From positions 40,160,706 through 40,224,705 of the forward strand of contig NC_090283.1 of assembly GCF_037392515.1 (NCBI RefSeq): 64,000 bases of DNA, given 5' to 3'. Of the stretch, positions 1,456-9,944 are shown piece after piece (positions within the stretch are counted from its first letter, which is position 1; every line of letters starts with the position of its first letter). A program made the position numbers and the translations under genes. The notes under the pieces are model-generated. The model did no database searches. It saw only the letters and a list, made by a program, of their open reading frames with translations, and was not told where the DNA came from. The stretch comes from Haliotis asinina (Eukaryota; Mollusca; Gastropoda; Lepetellida; Haliotidae).

Positions 1456-1770
1456 TATACATACATACATACATACATACATACATACATACATACATAC
1501 ATACATACATACATACATACATACATACATACATACATACATACATACATACATACATACATACCGAATGTTAAATGTATAGAGGAAATATCTCATACGC
1601 ACATACGCACATGTGCGCACACAGATAGATAGAGAGATGTCTAGATACGCACATAGATGCATACATAGATATATATATATATACATACATACATAGATAG
1701 ATACATAGATATATAGATACATACATACATAGATACATACATAGATACATAGGTACATACATACATACAT
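1456..1770. repeat. CATA microsatellite, two blocks
   Basis: A near-perfect (CATA)n run covers about 1456-1563. A degenerate CATA/GATA run covers about 1640-1770. Open frames across it encode only YIHT or MYVC repeats and are not genes. Confidence 0.9.
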
Positions 1771-2832: not shown

Positions 2833-2837
2833 TTGAA
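2833..2837. other. Target-site duplication TTGAA, left
   Basis: The five bases TTGAA precede the CAGAGTC terminus and are repeated at 9128-9132 after the other terminus. Removing one copy plus the insert restores the LINE endonuclease frame as SWNIEGLRKYD, the expected motif for this domain. Confidence 0.75.
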
Positions 2838-2908
2838 CAGAGTCAGGGCACCACTACAAACAAGGATAATGGGTCATTCCGGTGATTATCCCTAATCTTA
2901 GGGATGGA

Positions 2909-3349
2909 ACGAGCTCGCTATGGGCATAAAAACGCGCGTTTTCCACTACACGGGCGAGCAATGTACAGTTTGCATCACCTTACAACAGCTAGTTATGCAA
3001 ACACCGGGAATTTACCGCATTTTGGTCGACTGGTCCGAAGTAAATATGACCTGCCTCGCCATTTTGCGCAATTATGCCCGTCAACATGCTTAGTTAATGT
3101 TTGTATGTACATTTATGTCACTCACCTAGGGGAACGATCTTTCCCCTCTGCACCCAAACCGGAACTGCCACTTGATTGGCACACAAACTTCCGCAAGGGG
3201 ACGTAATGCGATGTAGGGGTCGGAAACCGTGAAATAGCTATGGTGTGCTCTCAGGACCATTTCCACATTGTGAAAATCGCATACATGACAGAACACAGTA
3301 CAGCAGTTGGAAAGGAACTTTCAATCATGAAAACAAGTACACATGCATT
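2909..3349 (+). repeat. Left inverted arm
   Basis: This arm matches 8625-9103 in inverted orientation. The inner 200 bp (from about 3150) are nearly identical, while the outer part has drifted and carries small indels. The same frame is open in both arms (HFGRLVR.KY.LPRH), with mostly conservative changes, which could be coding or chance. Confidence 0.8.
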
Positions 3350-3650
3350 CAAAATAAACGTAACTGATAAATGTAAATTGTGATACATGTAATTAACAAA
3401 AGAAAAATTAGTGACACGTCTGTGTATTATCTTCTTGTTACAGCTGCAACAACAGGAAGTGCAGTTGCAGCCGTCATGACCTTTTTGCACAAAATAAATA
3501 TTAATCGTTCAGTGTTTCTACAATTTCCTCAAAGAAACGGGTCAAGCCCATCCATGACACACATTTAAAATTGGGCTACCTAAAAGTAAAATCAACGTAT
3601 ATATGCACATCCTGCATAGCTTATATGAAGGAACATTTCATCCAACCACA

Positions 3651-4735
3651 ATTATCACCCACCAGAAGACATCGCCATTGAGACAATTAATACAGCAACT
3701 GACAATGACAGGCTCAGTGAAGAACAAATAAACAATCTGTGCGAGTTAGTGGGGAAACTTGCGAGGAACGGCATACAAACAGACATCACAGAGATATGTA
3801 GGCATTACCAAAGGGATGTTTTTTCATCATAATTATGCGTTGACACCGTGACTAAAAGAAAGACATTCACTGTTGCTAGAATTTCTTACAGCGTTTGCTA
3901 ATGTCAATGTGAATGCATTGGATAATGAAGAATCTGACAAGTCCTTGCGCGTACTGTGTACAGTCGTTGATCACATGTACTTTCTTGTGTCACCCAGCAT
4001 AGTCACGCCATTGGCCTTCGTTTCAAACATGTTTCCCTACTTTATCTCAGGCAACGAAAGTGCACATCAACTCCATCACAGTACAAGTCCTTGTGGCACT
4101 TACACGACTATACGGAAATGGATAGAGAGAGGAACTAACGTCCCCAATAGATTGTCCACTGAAGGCAGTGTTTGTATTTACTTTGATAATAACCAGGTCC
4201 TACAGAAAAGGTAGAGGGTTGTACTTAGCTTCAAGCTTCAAAATGCAGTATCATGACCCATGCCATTGCCATACAAAACCCGCACAACAACATTCACCCT
4301 TTTACTGGCTCTACACAGTGTCTGATGCTAACTGCACTACTGAATTAAATGATATGAGTTCAGCATGTGAACAACACCTGTGGCAATACACTAATGTTTT
4401 CATCCAGTCTGAGATAAAACATGTTCTGCAGACATTGTCGCAACCAAACCCGGATGAAACCATGAGTGACAGTATTGCTAAGGGTGAAGTTGAGGTCATT
4501 GATCTAGGGGGTTTTAAGACCACGTCTGATCCATATTGTCTTGTCGACTCTCACCATCCACAATTTCCGCCTACCACAACACTCACGGATAACAGCACTA
4601 GGTCATCAAGCAGGGTTGGGGCAGGGAAGACAGTGGATAGGTTGTGATGGCACTCCCTACAACCACGTTGCCCGGATGATTGAGGACTGGTATTCCTGTG
4701 GTGAATGTGGACAGGAGTTCCGCAGCGAGGTACCG
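3651..4735 (+). pseudogene. Unrecognised transposon-type protein, frame-broken
   Basis: Three frames in succession give protein-like sequence. First comes an acidic N-terminal piece with SEEQINNLCELVGKLARNG, ending at a stop near 3831. Next is a piece from about 3873 with VSNMFPYFISGNES and ending FDNNQVLQKR (4214). Then come frames through 4647 and 4735 with IAKGEVEVIDLGGF and CDGTPYNHVARMIEDW followed by CGECGQEF, a C-x2-C pair. The FDNNQ and CDGTPY aspartates could be part of a nuclease-like fold, but that is speculation. I recall similar motifs in uncharacterised invertebrate proteins but cannot name the family. It is likely the decayed transposase or an accessory gene of the surrounding element. 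Confidence 0.45.
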
Positions 4736-4865
4736 AGGTACTGTCGTCGAGTGGACATACAAGCAAAGGGGAAGGAGGTACTGTCGTCGAGTGGACATAC
4801 AAGCAAAGGGGAAGAAGGTACTGTCGTCGAGTGGACGGACATACAAGCAAAGGGGAAGGGGGTGA
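4735..4865 (+). repeat. 40-bp tandem repeat, about 3 copies
   Basis: The unit starting CTGTCGTCGAGTGGACATAC recurs at 4741, 4781 and 4821 with a period of exactly 40 bp. The third copy has a 4-bp insertion. It follows directly on the CDGTPY-containing frame and may be a decayed C-terminal expansion. Confidence 0.85.
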
Positions 4866-5519
4866 CTTTATCCTTGAAGGTCGGAATCTTAAAGTGAAGA
4901 CATGGGCGTTACAACGGAGCACACGTGGCTAAGGAGCTGTCGTAATCTCGACAGGGTGGAAAAGGTAAATATCAAATTGAATGTAAAATAATACATAGAT
5001 AATACATACATAATAATAATAATAGGATATTCAAATCCTATGCAATATATTGAATCAGTAAATTCGGCCACCACACATACTGTTATGGCAGGTTATAACT
5101 CACCAATTCTTTTTGTTTTAATTCTTTGTGATTAGCCTTGATTATAACTATGTTATTATGACAAAGCGTTACCCTAAGTGGTGTAGAGGGAAAGGTGTAT
5201 CAAATGAAGTGGGTCGATTCCCGCTCAGGCGTTATTATTTCTTTTTTATTATGTTATATACATTACGTTGATGTTTTACTGCAATAAAGGACAGACATAT
5301 GCATATTGTTTCCGAGGTGGTTTTTTTTGCTGATGATGGCTTTGTTATGGGATGATTGTGATCAGGATAGTAGTACGATATGTATTTCAGATGGATGATG
5401 CGTTTAACATGAATGTCAAGACATGTCAAATGCACCTAGTATTCACAGCTACTGTTTTGGTGTTGGCATCCAAACCAAAAATTGGCTTTTGTGGTGATCA
5501 GCATTGCTGTCGTATGTTA

Positions 5520-6761
5520 CGAGGGGAAGTCAATAAGTTCATAGAAGTGGGTGCTGATATATCCTTGGTGATGTTGTCATTGGTGTCATTATTGAGTTGA
5601 TTCATCTGTGACTCTGTATACTGATACCCAACCTTCCTCGAGCATTTACTTGAGAGTTAGAGCCTTTAAAAGACGATTACCCTGCACAAATCATGGAAAC
5701 CTCCAAAACTGAGTTTCGTGCAGTTATCAAGTTTCTCACTAAAGAAGGTGTGAATGCAACCGAAATCCACAAACGCATGATCTATGTGTATGGCGAGGAA
5801 GCCCCTCAATATTCCACTGTGGCAAAATGGTCAGCTGAGTTTAAGCGAGGTCGCAGCTCCTTGGAAGATGACCCACGGCCAGGAAGACCTTCTGAAGCCA
5901 TTACAGAAGATACAATTGCCCGGATCCAACGGCATTTCACATGGAAGTGTTTGCACAGTGATCCATGAACACCTGCACATGTCCAAGGTATCCGCAAGAT
6001 GGGTCCCTCGTAACCTAAATGCACATGATCGTCACCAGAGAGTTGAATCCAGTCGTGAGCTGTTGGACATCTACAACGCTGATCCTGATAACTTTCATGC
6101 TCGTCTGGTTACTGGGGATGAAACCCGGATTCATCACTGGGATCCCGAAACCAAACAAGAATCCATGCAGTGGAAGCACAAGCATTCTCCTGCACCCAAG
6201 AAGTTCAAAACACAACCTTCTGCTGGCAAGATCATGGCAACCGTTTTCTGGGATTCAAAGGGTGTGATTCTCATAGACTATAAACCACCTAAAACTACGA
6301 TCACAGGGGCTCACTATGCTGACTTGTTGAAAAGATTGAGAGCGGCCATCAAAGAGAAGAGGCGTGGGAAGTTGACAGCTGGAGTCATGCTTCTCCACGA
6401 CAATGCACCAGTCCACAAGAGCCGTGTTGCACAAGCTTCTCTTCAACAATGTGGCTTCGAACAACTAAACCATCCCCCATACAGTCCAGATCTGGCCCCC
6501 AGCGACTACTATCTGTTTCGCAATTTGAAATCTCACTTGCGTGGAACAAGATTTGCCAATGATGATGACCTCAAGGCAACAACAGAGGCGTGGCTGAGGG
6601 ACCAATCTGAAGACTTCTATTTCAAGGGCATAGACAGTCTCAAAGACAAATGGGCAAAATGCATCGAGGTTCAGGGAGACTATATTGAAAAATAAAACCA
6701 ATATCACAACCATTGTGTTCTGTTTTATATCGAGTTCTATGAACATATTGACTTCCCCTCG
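5520..6761 (+). mobile_element. mariner element (1242 bp), flanked by TA
   Basis: Terminal inverted repeats of about 27 bp with one mismatch (CGAGGGGAAGTCAATAAG... left, CGAGGGGAAGTCAATATG... right on the complement) are flanked by TA at 5518-5519 and 6762-6763, the target duplication typical of Tc1/mariner. The length is normal for the family. Sharp ends and few frame lesions suggest a younger insertion than its host element. It sits inside the 2838-9127 element. Confidence 0.95.
5693..6695 (+). pseudogene. mariner transposase with internal deletion
   Basis: The N-terminal paired-like HTH region is open from 5693 (METSKTEFRAV) to IARIQR near 5930, where the frame shifts. The catalytic part continues to a TAA at 6693-6695. 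The DDD triad is visible: TGDET, HDNAPVH and SPDLAPSDYY, with exactly 34 residues between the second and third aspartates, as in DD34D mariners. The linker WVPRNL is also present. At the break the second helix-turn-helix seems to lack about 20 residues, so this looks like a deletion plus frameshift rather than a single-base error. The encoded enzyme would cut and paste the element in the nucleus; this copy is very likely inactive. Confidence 0.9.
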
Positions 6762-6763
6762 TA

Positions 6764-7016
6764 TCTTGCACTGGCGACAGTTATCCTTCTCGCTTGACGT
6801 TTGCGTGTGGGTCCTTTTCCGTTGTGTCATGTGACAAGTGCCAGTAGTATCCTGATTAGGAGACATGGTTGTGCTAGTGCTGGTGCTAGTGCTAGTGCTA
6901 CTGCTGGACTGAGCAGAACTGGTGCTACTGTTACTGGTACTAGTGGTTGTGGTGCTGATGCAGTGTCTATTAGCAGTGGCGCCGGTGGTAGTGGGTATGG
7001 TCTCATTAGTAGACAT
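6764..7016 (-). CDS. Thr/Ser-rich frame cut by the mariner, function unknown
   Basis: On the - strand an open frame from 7016 encodes a low-complexity Thr/Ser-rich segment followed by KDNCRQCKI, where the mariner right end interrupts it. Joining the flanks across the mariner and one TA continues the frame as TYDSNADHHKSQFLVW and then a stop, so the mariner may have landed in a short cysteine-containing coding region. It belongs to the 6.3-kb element. No family is recognised, and low-complexity bias could explain the open frame. Confidence 0.3.
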
Positions 7017-7448
7017 TGGGCGGGGTTTAACAGTTTCAGCTGTAGTTATTGTAGTGATTAAATGGGGTTTTAGTCCTAGTCGAACACTTGCTGACTGAGG
7101 TAGTTTCAGTGGGTGTCATTAGACTTTGAGGTGGCGGTGGCATTGTTAGTATGTTTGTTTTTGTTGTCATTGCTTCCTGAAAGTAAATAACAGAAATTTA
7201 ACAGAAAACACATAACAATATTCTTATTGTCCTAATCATTTAGGTATGTACAGTTTCCTTATATCGTAAACATCTGACATACACACGGGGTAATAATTTC
7301 CGGTGCAGAACTCTACTGGGGCATTTCCATCAGATGTTTCGAATATCACGTTCGCTCTCACTTCCGTCTGGATGTATATTTCCGGCAACTGGTTAATTAT
7401 GAGGAGATATATTATATGCAAAATGATATGTACATGTATTCTTTACAG

Positions 7449-7616
7449 ATCAGGAGCAAGGTCCTGCGACATGGTGCGTGAGGATGTCGTTTCCACCACT
7501 GACGACACCACTGACGAAATGGCGGGTTTCCGGCAAACCGGTTTGGATCTCACTCATTTAGATCCTGTGATGGACAGTTGCGTAGCACACTGTCCGCTAA
7601 ATCGTCAAACTTATCG
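7449..7616 (+). CDS. Candidate exon inside the 6.3-kb element
   Basis: The segment follows a TTCTTTACAG acceptor and ends at a CG|GTATGT donor. Only one frame is open (GARSCDMVREDVVSTTDDTT...). Its end phase does not fit the start of the next candidate exon at 7867, so an exon boundary is wrong, an exon is missing or the gene is decayed. No domain is recognised. Confidence 0.35.
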
Positions 7617-7866
7617 GTATGTCATGCAACGCAGTTGTTCTTTATGTGTATGTTGTCATCAGAAGAGAGTGCCAATTGTATTTTCACTAGCATGTTATAT
7701 TCTATCAGTAAACATATTGCCACCATCCCATGGTCATGCTGACAACGTCATCGCCCTCACGTCAACGTTACTATGTCAATATTAATTTCTGTATTGATCA
7801 TATCAAAAGATCACACATTCATTTTTTTTATTATGTTGTATTCATTCATGATTAGATGCAGCGCAG

Positions 7867-8216
7867 GTGAGGGCCTCTGCTAAAAGGAAACGCCTTGCCC
7901 TGCTGGTTGTTCTACCGGAGGACAGAACCAGTTATGATCAGCCCCAGCGGAGGACTGCTGCAGAGCTGTCCACCATGGTGTCAGTGAGACTGGCCATGAT
8001 ATCGGTATGTATATCTCACCAGTTCATTATGACTATTTTTCTCATCGCATGACTGTTGTCACACTCCGCAATGTGTGACCATACAATGGTCAGTTCATGG
8101 AATGTTTCCAGGTTGAAAACGCACTGCGAGAAAAATGGTCAGAGGTTGCCAAAAGAGGCAGTAAGGCGGACATTTTACAGTTTGGGCTGCAACTCCAAGA
8201 GATAGAGACCAATGAG
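7867..8216 (+). CDS. Two phase-compatible candidate exons (7867-8004, 8112-8216)
   Basis: The first exon follows a CAG and ends at ATCG|GTATGT (46 codons, phase 0). The second follows TTTCCAG and ends at AATGAG|GTAATA (35 codons, phase 0). Joined, they read through ELSTMVSVRLAMIS into VENALREKWSEVAKRGSKAD, an acidic, helical-looking sequence. Matching phases and good splice sites support a real spliced gene carried by the element. Function is unknown. Confidence 0.4.
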
Positions 8217-8624
8217 GTAATATCCTCTGATGCGTATACATTGACATACACGATTGTCATTACCTACCTAATCATGGTCATTCTTTTTTGGGAAAAGGTT
8301 TTGTATTTTCTTTGGGCGTCTGACAGGTACCGTATCTGTCTCGTTCCAGTTGGGTGTGGGCCAGTTGTTTCATATGGTGTTTCTTCAACACCAGCCAGTC
8401 CATTTCATGTGTGTTTTTTTGTCCCTTGGATCCTATGTAACAACTCAATTATCTTATTCCACATTTTAAATGCTACCTTTTTTATTTTTATTTTAAAACA
8501 CAAATGCTATTTGCACACACAATTGTTGACATTTGTTGTTACATTAATGATCTTGATAAAAGGTGTTTTATGGTGTATTTGGGCTTCCATAGATTCTGCC
8601 GACATCGAGGGGTAACTCATATAT

Positions 8625-9103
8625 AATGCATGTGTACTTGTTTTCATGATTGAAAGTTCCTTTCCAACTGTTGTACTGTGTTCTGTCATGTATGCGATTT
8701 TCACAATGTGGAAATGGTCCTGAGAGCACACCATAGCTATTTCACGGTTTCCGACCCCTACATCGCATTACGTCCCCTTGCGGAAGTTTGTGCGCCAATC
8801 AAGTGGCAGTTCCAGTTTGTATGCAGAGGGGAACATCGTTCCACAAGGTGAGCGACGTAAATGTACATTAAAAGAAAACATTTACTAAGCATGTTAACGG
8901 GCATAACTGCACTAAATGGCGAGGCAGGCCATATTTCTTTCGGACTAGCCGGCCAAAATGCGGAAAATTAACGGTTTTGTTGCATACGTAGCTGTTGTAA
9001 GGAACGCACGTGATGCAAACTGTGCACATACCATTGTCCGCCAGTGTAGTGGAAGACCGCGAGCGAGCGCAACGCCCATTTGTATGCCAATAGCGGGCTC
9101 GTT
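8625..9103 (-). repeat. Right inverted arm
   Basis: This is the inverted counterpart of 2909-3349. It is about 40 bp longer because of small insertions in the outer part. The near-identical inner block includes the frame starting MVCSQDHFHIVKIAYMTEHS in both arms. Confidence 0.8.
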
Positions 9104-9132
9104 GTTTGTTGGGGTGTCCCGAACCTGTTGAA

Positions 9133-9944
9133 GGACTGAGGAAATATGATTCTTCGTGTTCAAAGGTAAAGGAGTATTGCCGACAGTTTGATATTATTTC
9201 GTTTTGTGAATCGTTTACTAGATCAGCTGGTGACTTCACTAACGTTCTCAATCGATTTCAAATTTACAATAGCGTGCGACCCAAACATAAGCATTTTGAG
9301 TGCTATAGTGGTGGTGTCAGCGTTTTCATTAAGAAATGGCTTGGTACTGCCGTTTTTTTAATCGAATATATGATCGGTTCCAAAATACCGATGTTATGTT
9401 GGCTACGTCGATGTTTGCTTATGATTTTATCATTATCTTGATATTCACGCATTTGTCACCTGTAGCTTCTTCTCTATATATTGATTCAGATAAAGATGGT
9501 ATGACAGATCTGGAACAATATCTATTAACAATAGTAACAGATTATCCGGATCAGAGAATATTTCTTGTTGGTGATCTCAATGCCAGAGTGAAGGATTTCC
9601 ATGATGATATTCCAGCTGATAATATTAGCTTCATTAGTAGAGACGTGTTTAATTTGCTTCGAAATAGTAAAGACAATGTTTATAACAATTACGGTAAGCA
9701 GTTAGCTGATATTTCTCGTTCCCTTGGAATACATGGAATATAGTTGCATAATGACAAACAGGGAGAATTTACATGTTTCACATATAAGGGTCAAAGTGTC
9801 ATAGACTATATGATTGCATCTGATTTGTGTACATGGATCTCAAATTTTGGAGTCTCAGTGAGGGATGAAAGTAACCACTTCCCATTGTATTGTTCATTAA
9901 CATTGCCAGCATCTGGATGTGTTCCTAATTTAGCAAGGACTTAG
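9133..9944 (+). pseudogene. LINE endonuclease domain, broken
   Basis: The frame from the junction gives GLRKYDSSC, then QFDIISFCESFT (the E-containing motif), SGGVSVFIKKW, and after a frameshift near 9345 FTHLSPVASSLY, VGDLNARVKDF (D-x-N motif), a TAG at about 9741, then GQSVIDYMIASD and ESNHFPLYC (the SDH-like histidine). This order is that of APE-type endonucleases that nick target DNA for target-primed reverse transcription. One frameshift and one stop are visible. Confidence 0.8.

What the first reader, a model, noticed from the sequence alone, without database searches (positions are those of the whole stretch)
2838..9127. Possible undescribed DNA transposon with long inverted arms, CAG termini and 5-bp target duplications
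The ends and duplication resemble the hAT5 group, but no hAT transposase is recognised. The interior instead has a broken protein with FDNNQ and CDGTPY...CxxC motifs, spliced-looking exons and 440-480 bp subterminal arms. Gene content and structure do not fit a family I know.
Basis: partly seen in the sequence, partly recalled or inferred. Interest (0 to 1): 0.75.

Follow-up and report, generated by a model that had tools for sequence, protein, structure and literature searches.

The report
Unclassified DNA transposon with unfamiliar transposase
A dead copy of a 'jumping gene' sits here; better-kept relatives elsewhere in the same genome suggest that it moved by cut-and-paste with a transposase that matches no transposase model we could search, so it may be an unnamed lineage of DNA transposons.

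Summary
A 6,290-bp element lies at 2838-9127 with CAG...CTG ends, 503-512 bp inverted arms and a 5-bp duplication (TTGAA), inside a non-LTR retrotransposon. The copy is dead: a mariner is nested at 5520-6761, frames are broken, and about 200 codons of the main protein are lost. A relative on contig C10 has a stop-free 736-codon frame (FDNNQ, CDGLP, C2H2 finger, GHMEIN, GGDFILE), arms of about 0.7 kb and duplication GTAAT. Of 7 independent two-ended copies, 3 have perfect and 3 have 4-of-5 duplications of 5 bp; 1 has none. The frame evolved under purifying selection (dN/dS 0.32-0.44 in 5 of 5 comparisons; 0.82-1.38 out of frame). No Pfam transposase model matched; the only lead is sub-threshold, DUF6589 (E=7.6e-4). 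A PHD-like finger on the opposite strand in both lineages is weakly supported. Best reading: a cut-and-paste transposon of an unclassified group, perhaps related to DUF6589, working like hAT or Transib elements. RNase H-like fold and absence from Repbase were not tested.

The parts
2833..2837 (.). target site duplication, left copy (TTGAA)
   Evidence: sequence
2838..3349 (+). left terminal inverted arm (starts CAGAGTCAGGGCACC); outer ~370 bp shared inverted repeat, inner 142 bp of near-identity peculiar to this copy
   Evidence: other copies
3451..3615 (+). N-terminal part of the transposase-like protein (C.C..HD ... C..C), frame broken by a stop
   Evidence: tblastn of the C10 protein, E=7.4e-7 within this locus;
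3852..4214 (+). transposase-like segment with FDNNQ (4182-4196; candidate first catalytic Asp codon 4185-4187)
4213..4647 (+). transposase-like segment, central, shifted frame; assigned by likeness to the C4:48.17 Mb copy
4612..4735 (+). CDGTPY motif (4643-4660; candidate second Asp codon 4646-4648) and C..C of the zinc finger
4735..4863 (+). 40-bp tandem repeat where about 200 codons (with the GHxEIN block) are missing compared with the C10 protein
4831..4976 (+). C-terminal block with GEGGDFILEGRN (candidate catalytic Glu, codon 4876-4878)
5376..5477 (-). remnant of a PHD-like zinc finger on the opposite strand, cut off from its 5' part by the mariner; weak
   Evidence: tblastn E=0.012; sub-threshold Pfam PHD models for the C17 reading
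5518..6763 (+). nested mariner (TA duplications 5518-5519 and 6762-6763; Mos1-type HTH and Transposase_1), not part of the element
7449..8217 (+). possible second + strand gene: three splice-bounded exons near 7449-7616, 7862-8004 and 8112-8216; coding not demonstrated
   Evidence: sequence, splice edges and dN/dS
8625..9127 (-). right terminal inverted arm (ends ..CCCGAACCTG)
9128..9132 (.). target site duplication, right copy (TTGAA)

Best explanation
A dead copy of a cut-and-paste DNA transposon from a lineage outside every transposase family searched here. A better-kept member encodes a single-frame transposase of about 730 residues. Its likely plan, read from conserved motifs: an N-terminal zinc-binding region, probably for binding the terminal arms; a first catalytic Asp at the end of a strand (FDNNQ); a second Asp (CDGLP) followed by a C2H2 finger; and a catalytic Glu either in GHxEIN or, after a long helical segment, in GGDFILE. 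The transposase would bind the long inverted arms, cut at the CAG/CTG ends, and join them to target strands 5 bp apart, leaving 5-bp duplications. Short arm-only copies would move in trans. Shown: ends, arms, a 5-bp duplication in several insertions, a conserved frame under purifying selection, relatives in three sequence lineages. Inferred: that the protein is the transposase, DDE chemistry, RNase H fold, arm binding, cut-and-paste.
For: Exact ends and duplication. Of 7 independent two-ended insertions, 3 have perfect and 3 have 4/5 duplications; in those six, length 5 stands out among lengths 2 to 10, and the chance of at least 6 of 7 with 4/5 or better is about 2e-10. C10 relative: 736-codon open frame, arms of about 0.7 kb at 93% (704 of 729 ungapped columns in a longer alignment), first 250 bp of the two arms 100% identical. 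dN/dS 0.32-0.44 in frame against 0.82-1.38 in the shifted frames, 5 of 5 comparisons. 35 arm matches, among them a 908-bp copy made of arm sequence. 54 protein matches in the genome. A third lineage at 29-33% identity keeps CDGLP, GHYEIN and QNASDHHK. No transposase model among Pfam matches at E<=5 for the C10 protein or E<=1 for 7 members. DUF6589 at E=7.6e-4, below cut-off (18.7 of 27 bits).
Against: No structure was computed, so the DDE assignment rests on motif order. Two places compete for the Glu. The C4:48.17 Mb copy has no matching duplication (TTACG/CAAAC), and three others match at only 4 of 5. Window-family segments show only weak constraint (dN/dS 0.68-0.97 in frame; for one segment against C4:48.17 a shifted frame scored lower, 0.34). 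The DUF6589 link is sub-threshold, and a profile-profile comparison with 5 local DUF6589 rows was not significant (hhalign P=0.036 and 0.11 in the two directions, probability 1.4% and 0.5%). HMMER's filters drop most weak matches, so silence at E<=5 is not proof of no relation. Repbase could not be searched.
Confidence: 0.7

Rival explanations
1. A very divergent branch of hAT5: same CAG..CTG ends and 5-bp duplications, with a hAT transposase too diverged for the Pfam hAT models.
For: CAG/CTG ends. hAT5 is described as hAT with 5-bp duplications (PMC12730594, passage seen). That hAT elements often end in CAG..CTG is recalled.
Against: No hAT model among the matches of a 736-aa uninterrupted protein at E<=5 or of 7 members at E<=1. 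Arms of 0.4-0.8 kb are unusual for hAT (recalled).
Confidence: 0.13
2. A distant branch of the CACTA/Mirage/Chapaev/Transib (RAG) assemblage: 5-bp duplication as in Transib/RAG transposons, a PHD-finger gene convergent with the transposase, and a C(2)C..H(4)H finger after the second Asp.
For: 5-bp duplications and convergent RAG1L and RAG2L (Kelch-PHD) genes mark RAGL transposons (PMC7204232, passages; PMC4411706, passages). PHD-like finger on the opposite strand in two lineages. Motif spacing resembles RAG1 as I recall it.
Against: Pfam RAG1 does not match. It finds nothing in this genome, but it rang in no control genome either, so that search says nothing on absence. Ends are CAG, not CAC (the CAC rule is recalled). 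No Kelch in 6 minus-strand frames of the C10 element. The PHD frame shows no purifying selection.
Confidence: 0.1
3. Already in Repbase under a name unknown to me (for example as an Academ-like or otherwise named family), so only unlabelled here.
For: Repbase is large (recalled), and DUF6589-type proteins are multi-copy in this genome.
Against: None of the papers listed by 10 searches was recognised from title and abstract start as describing it (several lists were capped), but no transposon database could be searched. AcademX makes 3-4 bp and AcademH 9-10 bp duplications (PMC10045372, passage), unlike 5 bp here.
Confidence: 0.3
4. The arms are two unrelated repeat insertions around a host gene fragment.
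For: Inner and outer arm segments have different identity.
Against: The arms are complementary from end to end and flanked by a duplication; the same arm-frame-arm plan recurs on C10 and C5 with different 5-bp duplications.
Confidence: 0.01

Closest known systems
DUF6589 proteins (Pfam PF20231)
   Same: The only Pfam family that more than one member reached (2 of 7 at E<=1). By eye the same order of motifs, DN - GDGL/GDQL - H..M - helical - N..AD..E, in local members. Multi-copy in this genome (21 matches, 17 marked over the cut-off)
   Different: Score below the curated cut-off (18.7 vs 27 bits). DUF6589 has no assigned function in Pfam, and the local sequences read across that region lack the C2H2 finger after the second Asp
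hAT5 group of hAT transposons
   Same: 5-bp duplication (PMC12730594) and CAG..CTG ends (recalled for hAT)
   Different: No hAT domain detected; much longer inverted arms (recalled for hAT)
Transib / ProtoRAG (RAG-like) transposons
   Same: 5-bp duplication; a PHD-like finger on the strand opposite the transposase (weak evidence)
   Different: Ends CAG, not CAC (recalled); no RAG1 match and no Kelch match
Kolobok and KolobokP
   Same: Zinc finger between second Asp and Glu in most Kolobok (PMC9587614, passages)
   Different: Kolobok makes TTAA 4-bp duplications with RR..YY ends (same passages); here 5 bp and CAG..CTG
Academ (AcademX/AcademH)
   Same: Eukaryotic DNA transposons; AcademH occurs in animals (title in the reference list seen)
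   Different: Duplications of 3-4 or 9-10 bp (PMC10045372); no helicase or nuclease match in the frames scanned

Membership tests
[quoted passage not shown]
   6 of 7 independent two-ended copies with 5/5 or 4/5 at length 5; 1 of 7 without
[quoted passage not shown]
   Joined flanks restore the LINE endonuclease frame. The one uninterrupted paralog found (C11:54408077-54408367, 75%) lacks 11 bases at the junction
hAT / hAT5 | 5-bp duplication and CAG..CTG ends | tested here: met
   (CAG rule recalled)
hAT / hAT5 | hAT transposase domain | tested here: not met
   no hAT model among Pfam matches
Transib / RAG | 5-bp duplication | tested here: met
Transib / RAG | CAC-type ends | tested here: not met
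   ends CAGGTCGGGGAG (C10) and CAGGTTCGGGAC (window right); the CAC rule is recalled
Transib / RAG | RAG1/Transib transposase core by sequence | tested here: not met
   PF12940 not among matches at E<=5; a Transib model proper was not tested
Transib / RAG | convergent Kelch-PHD (RAG2L) gene | tested here: inconclusive
   PHD-like sub-threshold matches in two lineages; no Kelch; no selection signal
Kolobok | TTAA target duplication | tested here: not met
   TTGAA, GTAAT, GTTGA
DUF6589 | score above Pfam gathering cut-off (27 bits) | tested here: not met
   18.7 bits
DDE/DDD transposases | RNase H-like fold with Asp-Asp-Glu | not testable with these tools
   The stated rule of structure prediction does not list loci from the genome search; the window copy lacks the third block
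any Repbase superfamily | similarity to a deposited consensus | not testable with these tools
   no Repbase or Dfam on hand

The most novel reading that the evidence does not exclude
A superfamily of eukaryotic DNA transposons, joined with DUF6589 proteins, whose transposase is a deep relative of the RAG1/Transib branch and which carries its own convergent PHD-finger gene. The RAG-like plan (transposase plus opposite-strand PHD protein, 5-bp duplication) would then be older or more widespread than the RAG/Transib lineage itself.
Probability: 0.12. Interest if true: 0.85.

Novelty: new variant of a known kind. Interest (0 to 1): 0.55.

Why it matters
If confirmed, it would add a superfamily-level lineage to the 20-odd that Repbase lists (20 with a DDD/E transposase in PMC9587614; 23 in all in PMC10045372), give a testable transposase function to DUF6589-type proteins of unknown function, and supply a well-kept member with very similar arms. 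The weak PHD link bears on how transposons with an accessory PHD protein, the kind that gave rise to RAG1-RAG2, arose.

Tried and rejected
Rejected: the arms as unrelated repeats (C10 and C5 copies); the mariner as the element's own transposase (nested, TA duplications, absent from C17); the 6-kb extra DNA in C17 and C4:48.17 Mb as part of the element (it is one non-LTR retrotransposon family inserted at two different places). Sub-threshold Pfam matches such as Amidase_2, DUF6788, Globin and FMP23 were taken as chance. No related solved structure (six matches of E about 1, all G3BP1; none at E<=1). No relative in viral contigs. No paper in the library holds the word DUF6589. The AcademH paper, which might have allowed a motif comparison, is not held. 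hhalign against five local DUF6589 rows was not significant. No common second + strand gene was found between the C10 element and the window. Two loci fetched as possible relatives, C7:31.68 Mb and C15:28.45 Mb, gave no tblastn match to the C10 protein and were not used further.

Not done: structure prediction. Its stated rule admits window proteins and loci from other tools than those I had, so the C10 protein was not sent; the window copy itself was judged too broken to fold usefully. The collection genome contigs was not scanned.
Full report
What is there. The window lies in a 1.14-Gb assembly (G000, contig C4). The element spans 2838-9127, 6,290 bp, with TTGAA on both sides. Its flanks are a non-LTR retrotransposon (named from the frame by eye; Pfam gave no match for window 9094-9441). 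Deleting the element and one TTGAA in silico restores the frame YILSWNIEGLRKYD, which looks like the start of its endonuclease. A genome search with the joined flanks gave 6 matches: the two halves at the window and at C17, with query ranges 1-138 and 134-305 at the window, overlapping by the 5 duplicated bases; one uninterrupted copy (C11, 75%); and one short match on C6. The uninterrupted copy has 11 bases missing at the junction, so it is not a clean empty site.

Arms. The arms are 512 and 503 bp. The outer 370 bp agree at 281 of 322 ungapped columns with 87 gap columns; the inner 142 bp agree at 141 of 142. The C17 and C4:48.17 Mb copies lack the inner right stretch (about window 8621-8766). 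The simplest reading is that the inner right arm of this copy was copied from the left arm after insertion (gene conversion); this is inference.

History of this copy. C17:1.491-1.503 Mb carries the same insertion with the same flanks (99.6% and 93.8% in the pieces that include flank), so it is an allele, haplotig or segmental duplicate, not an independent event. It lacks the mariner at window 5520-6761 and carries a 6-kb non-LTR retrotransposon. In the window copy the transposase frame is broken, and a 40-bp tandem repeat (4735-4863) stands where the C10 protein has about 200 more codons.

Relatives. Searching the genome with the 120-codon FDNNQ segment gave 12 matches, the window's own included, among them a 736-codon stop-free frame on C10. 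That element spans C10:42247149-42254363; blastn gives arms of 682/720 bp at 93%, a slightly longer global alignment 704 identities in 729 ungapped columns; the duplication is GTAAT. The C10 protein has 54 matches in the genome, a lower bound by the tool's own statement; these are pieces, not 54 elements. Its first 251 arm bases have 35 matches.

Target duplications. Two-ended copies read: window, C17 (same insertion, not counted), C10, C5, C4:62.23 Mb, C15:34.68 Mb (908 bp, made of arm sequence), C4:12.78 Mb, and C4:48.17 Mb. Three are perfect (TTGAA, GTAAT, GTTGA), three have 4 of 5 (TTTAA/CTTAA, GTGTA/GTGTG, TTTAT/TTCAT), one has none (TTACG/CAAAC). In the six, length 5 stands out among lengths 2 to 10 (the seventh was not put through that test). 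Four further loci (three on C6, one on C3) had a truncated or decayed end and were not counted. Other arm matches were one-ended or not fetched.

Protein. Conserved in the lineages of C10, the window family (window, C11, C4:48.17) and the C4:62.74 Mb array, as far as each is preserved: FDNNQ (FDSNQ in C4:48.17; outside the array fragment), CDG(L/S/T)P, a C..C finger followed in most by H....H, GHxEIN (lost in the window), QNASDHHK (C10 and its near relatives, and the array), GGDFILE. Of 8 rows with the GHxEIN block, all 8 keep the Glu (variants GHMEFN, SHMEIN, CHVEIS). The Glu of DFILE is kept in the rows that cover it except L041, where it is Asp, and L033, where the frame is lost. In C10 numbering the candidates are D248, D441, E506 or E689. 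Hydrophobic runs directly before D248 and D441 (GDIVTFF, SWVVVGC) are what RNase H-like strands look like; this is inspection, not prediction.

Selection. Against C10, dN/dS in the transposase frame is 0.37, 0.33, 0.44, 0.32 and 0.44 (C2, C7, C5, C4:62.23, C1), against 0.82-1.38 in the two shifted frames. A second + strand frame of the C10 element (4196-4912 of the element) gives 0.32 and 0.43 with C2 and C5, 0.84 with C4:62.23 and 0.15 over only 36 codons with C1; no shifted-frame control was run for it, and its tested part has no Pfam match. In the window family constraint is weak: 0.68 and 0.77 for the FDNNQ segment (shifted frames 0.91-1.21), 0.97 and 0.81 for the next, where a shifted frame scored lower in both comparisons (0.34 with C4:48.17, 0.65 with C11).

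Opposite strand. The C10 element has CDRCAEC-x17-C-x4-C-x4-H-x2-C-x19-C-x2-H on the minus strand (counted by eye), convergent with the transposase. It scores sub-threshold with Pfam PHD-type models (best E 0.0013). The window family has a decayed counterpart at 5477-5376 (tblastn E=0.012; PHD_Oberon E 0.0055-0.011 for the C17 reading), and the mariner sits beside it, cutting it from the likely 5' part. Six minus-strand frames scanned show no Kelch. dN/dS of the PHD frame is 0.63, 1.2 and 9.87, with shifted frames at 0.37-1.39, which gives no support for coding. The PHD gene is therefore a suggestion only.

What it belongs to. Pfam: DUF6589 (18.7 bits, cut-off 27, E=7.6e-4, residues 607-699; 2 of 7 members at E<=1); the other weak matches were single-member and taken as chance. 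DUF6589 loci exist in this genome (21 matches, 17 marked over the cut-off, 0 of 14 control genomes), and two read on different contigs are nearly identical (L045, L046). By eye their motifs follow the same order as ours. hhalign between our 12 rows and five local DUF6589 rows lined up the second Asp, the GH/FH block and the C-terminal helices in order, but with P=0.036 and probability 1.4% (0.11 and 0.5% the other way round), so not significant. PF12940 (RAG1) found nothing in the genome or in the 14 controls, so that search does not show absence.

How it works, with steps marked. Shown: a mobile unit with defined ends, 5-bp target duplications, a conserved protein, internally deleted and arm-only copies. 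Inferred: the protein is the transposase; Asp-Asp-Glu chemistry; binding of long arms; staggered 5-bp joining; mobilisation of short copies in trans.

Literature seen. PMC12730594, PMC12220107, PMC10045372, PMC9587614, PMC4411706 and PMC7204232: passages only. Ten paper searches were made (two of them found nothing, and several lists were capped); no listed paper was recognised from title and abstract start as describing this family, and the library holds open-licence papers only. RAG1 motif comparisons, the CAC rule for Transib ends and the CAG rule for hAT ends are recalled. The host was not identified; that it is an animal is inferred.

Noticed in passing
G000:C4:62737000-62779500 (L041): A tandem array: five identical 251-residue stretches of a third transposase lineage (plus a sixth, partial one), mostly 7.32 kb apart. 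In the one unit read, the stretch is fused to a reverse transcriptase of the non-LTR retrotransposon kind. It looks like recent satellite-like amplification of a chimeric unit.
   Followed up: partly
window 5518-6763: Nested mariner with 97% complementary 29-nt ends and TA duplications, frameshifted transposase; absent from C17.
   Followed up: yes
window 2838-3349 and 8625-9127: Inner 142 bp of the arms nearly identical while outer parts differ by about 13%, pointing to gene conversion between arms.
   Followed up: partly
C17:1.491-1.503 Mb and C4:48.168-48.178 Mb: The same kind of non-LTR retrotransposon (86% alike over 4.4 kb) is inserted in two copies of the element at different places.
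   Followed up: partly
G000, 21 places: DUF6589 proteins are themselves multi-copy in this genome, two of those read being near-identical on different contigs, so they may be transposon-borne.
   Followed up: no
window 1457-1770: Long (ATAC)n microsatellite left of the element.
   Followed up: no
G000:C15:34680910-34681817 (L053): 908-bp arm-only, MITE-like derivative with a 4/5 target duplication.
   Followed up: partly
G000:C11:54408077-54408367 (L065): The one uninterrupted retrotransposon copy found lacks 11 bases exactly at the point where the element sits in the window copy; chance deletion or something else is open.
   Followed up: no
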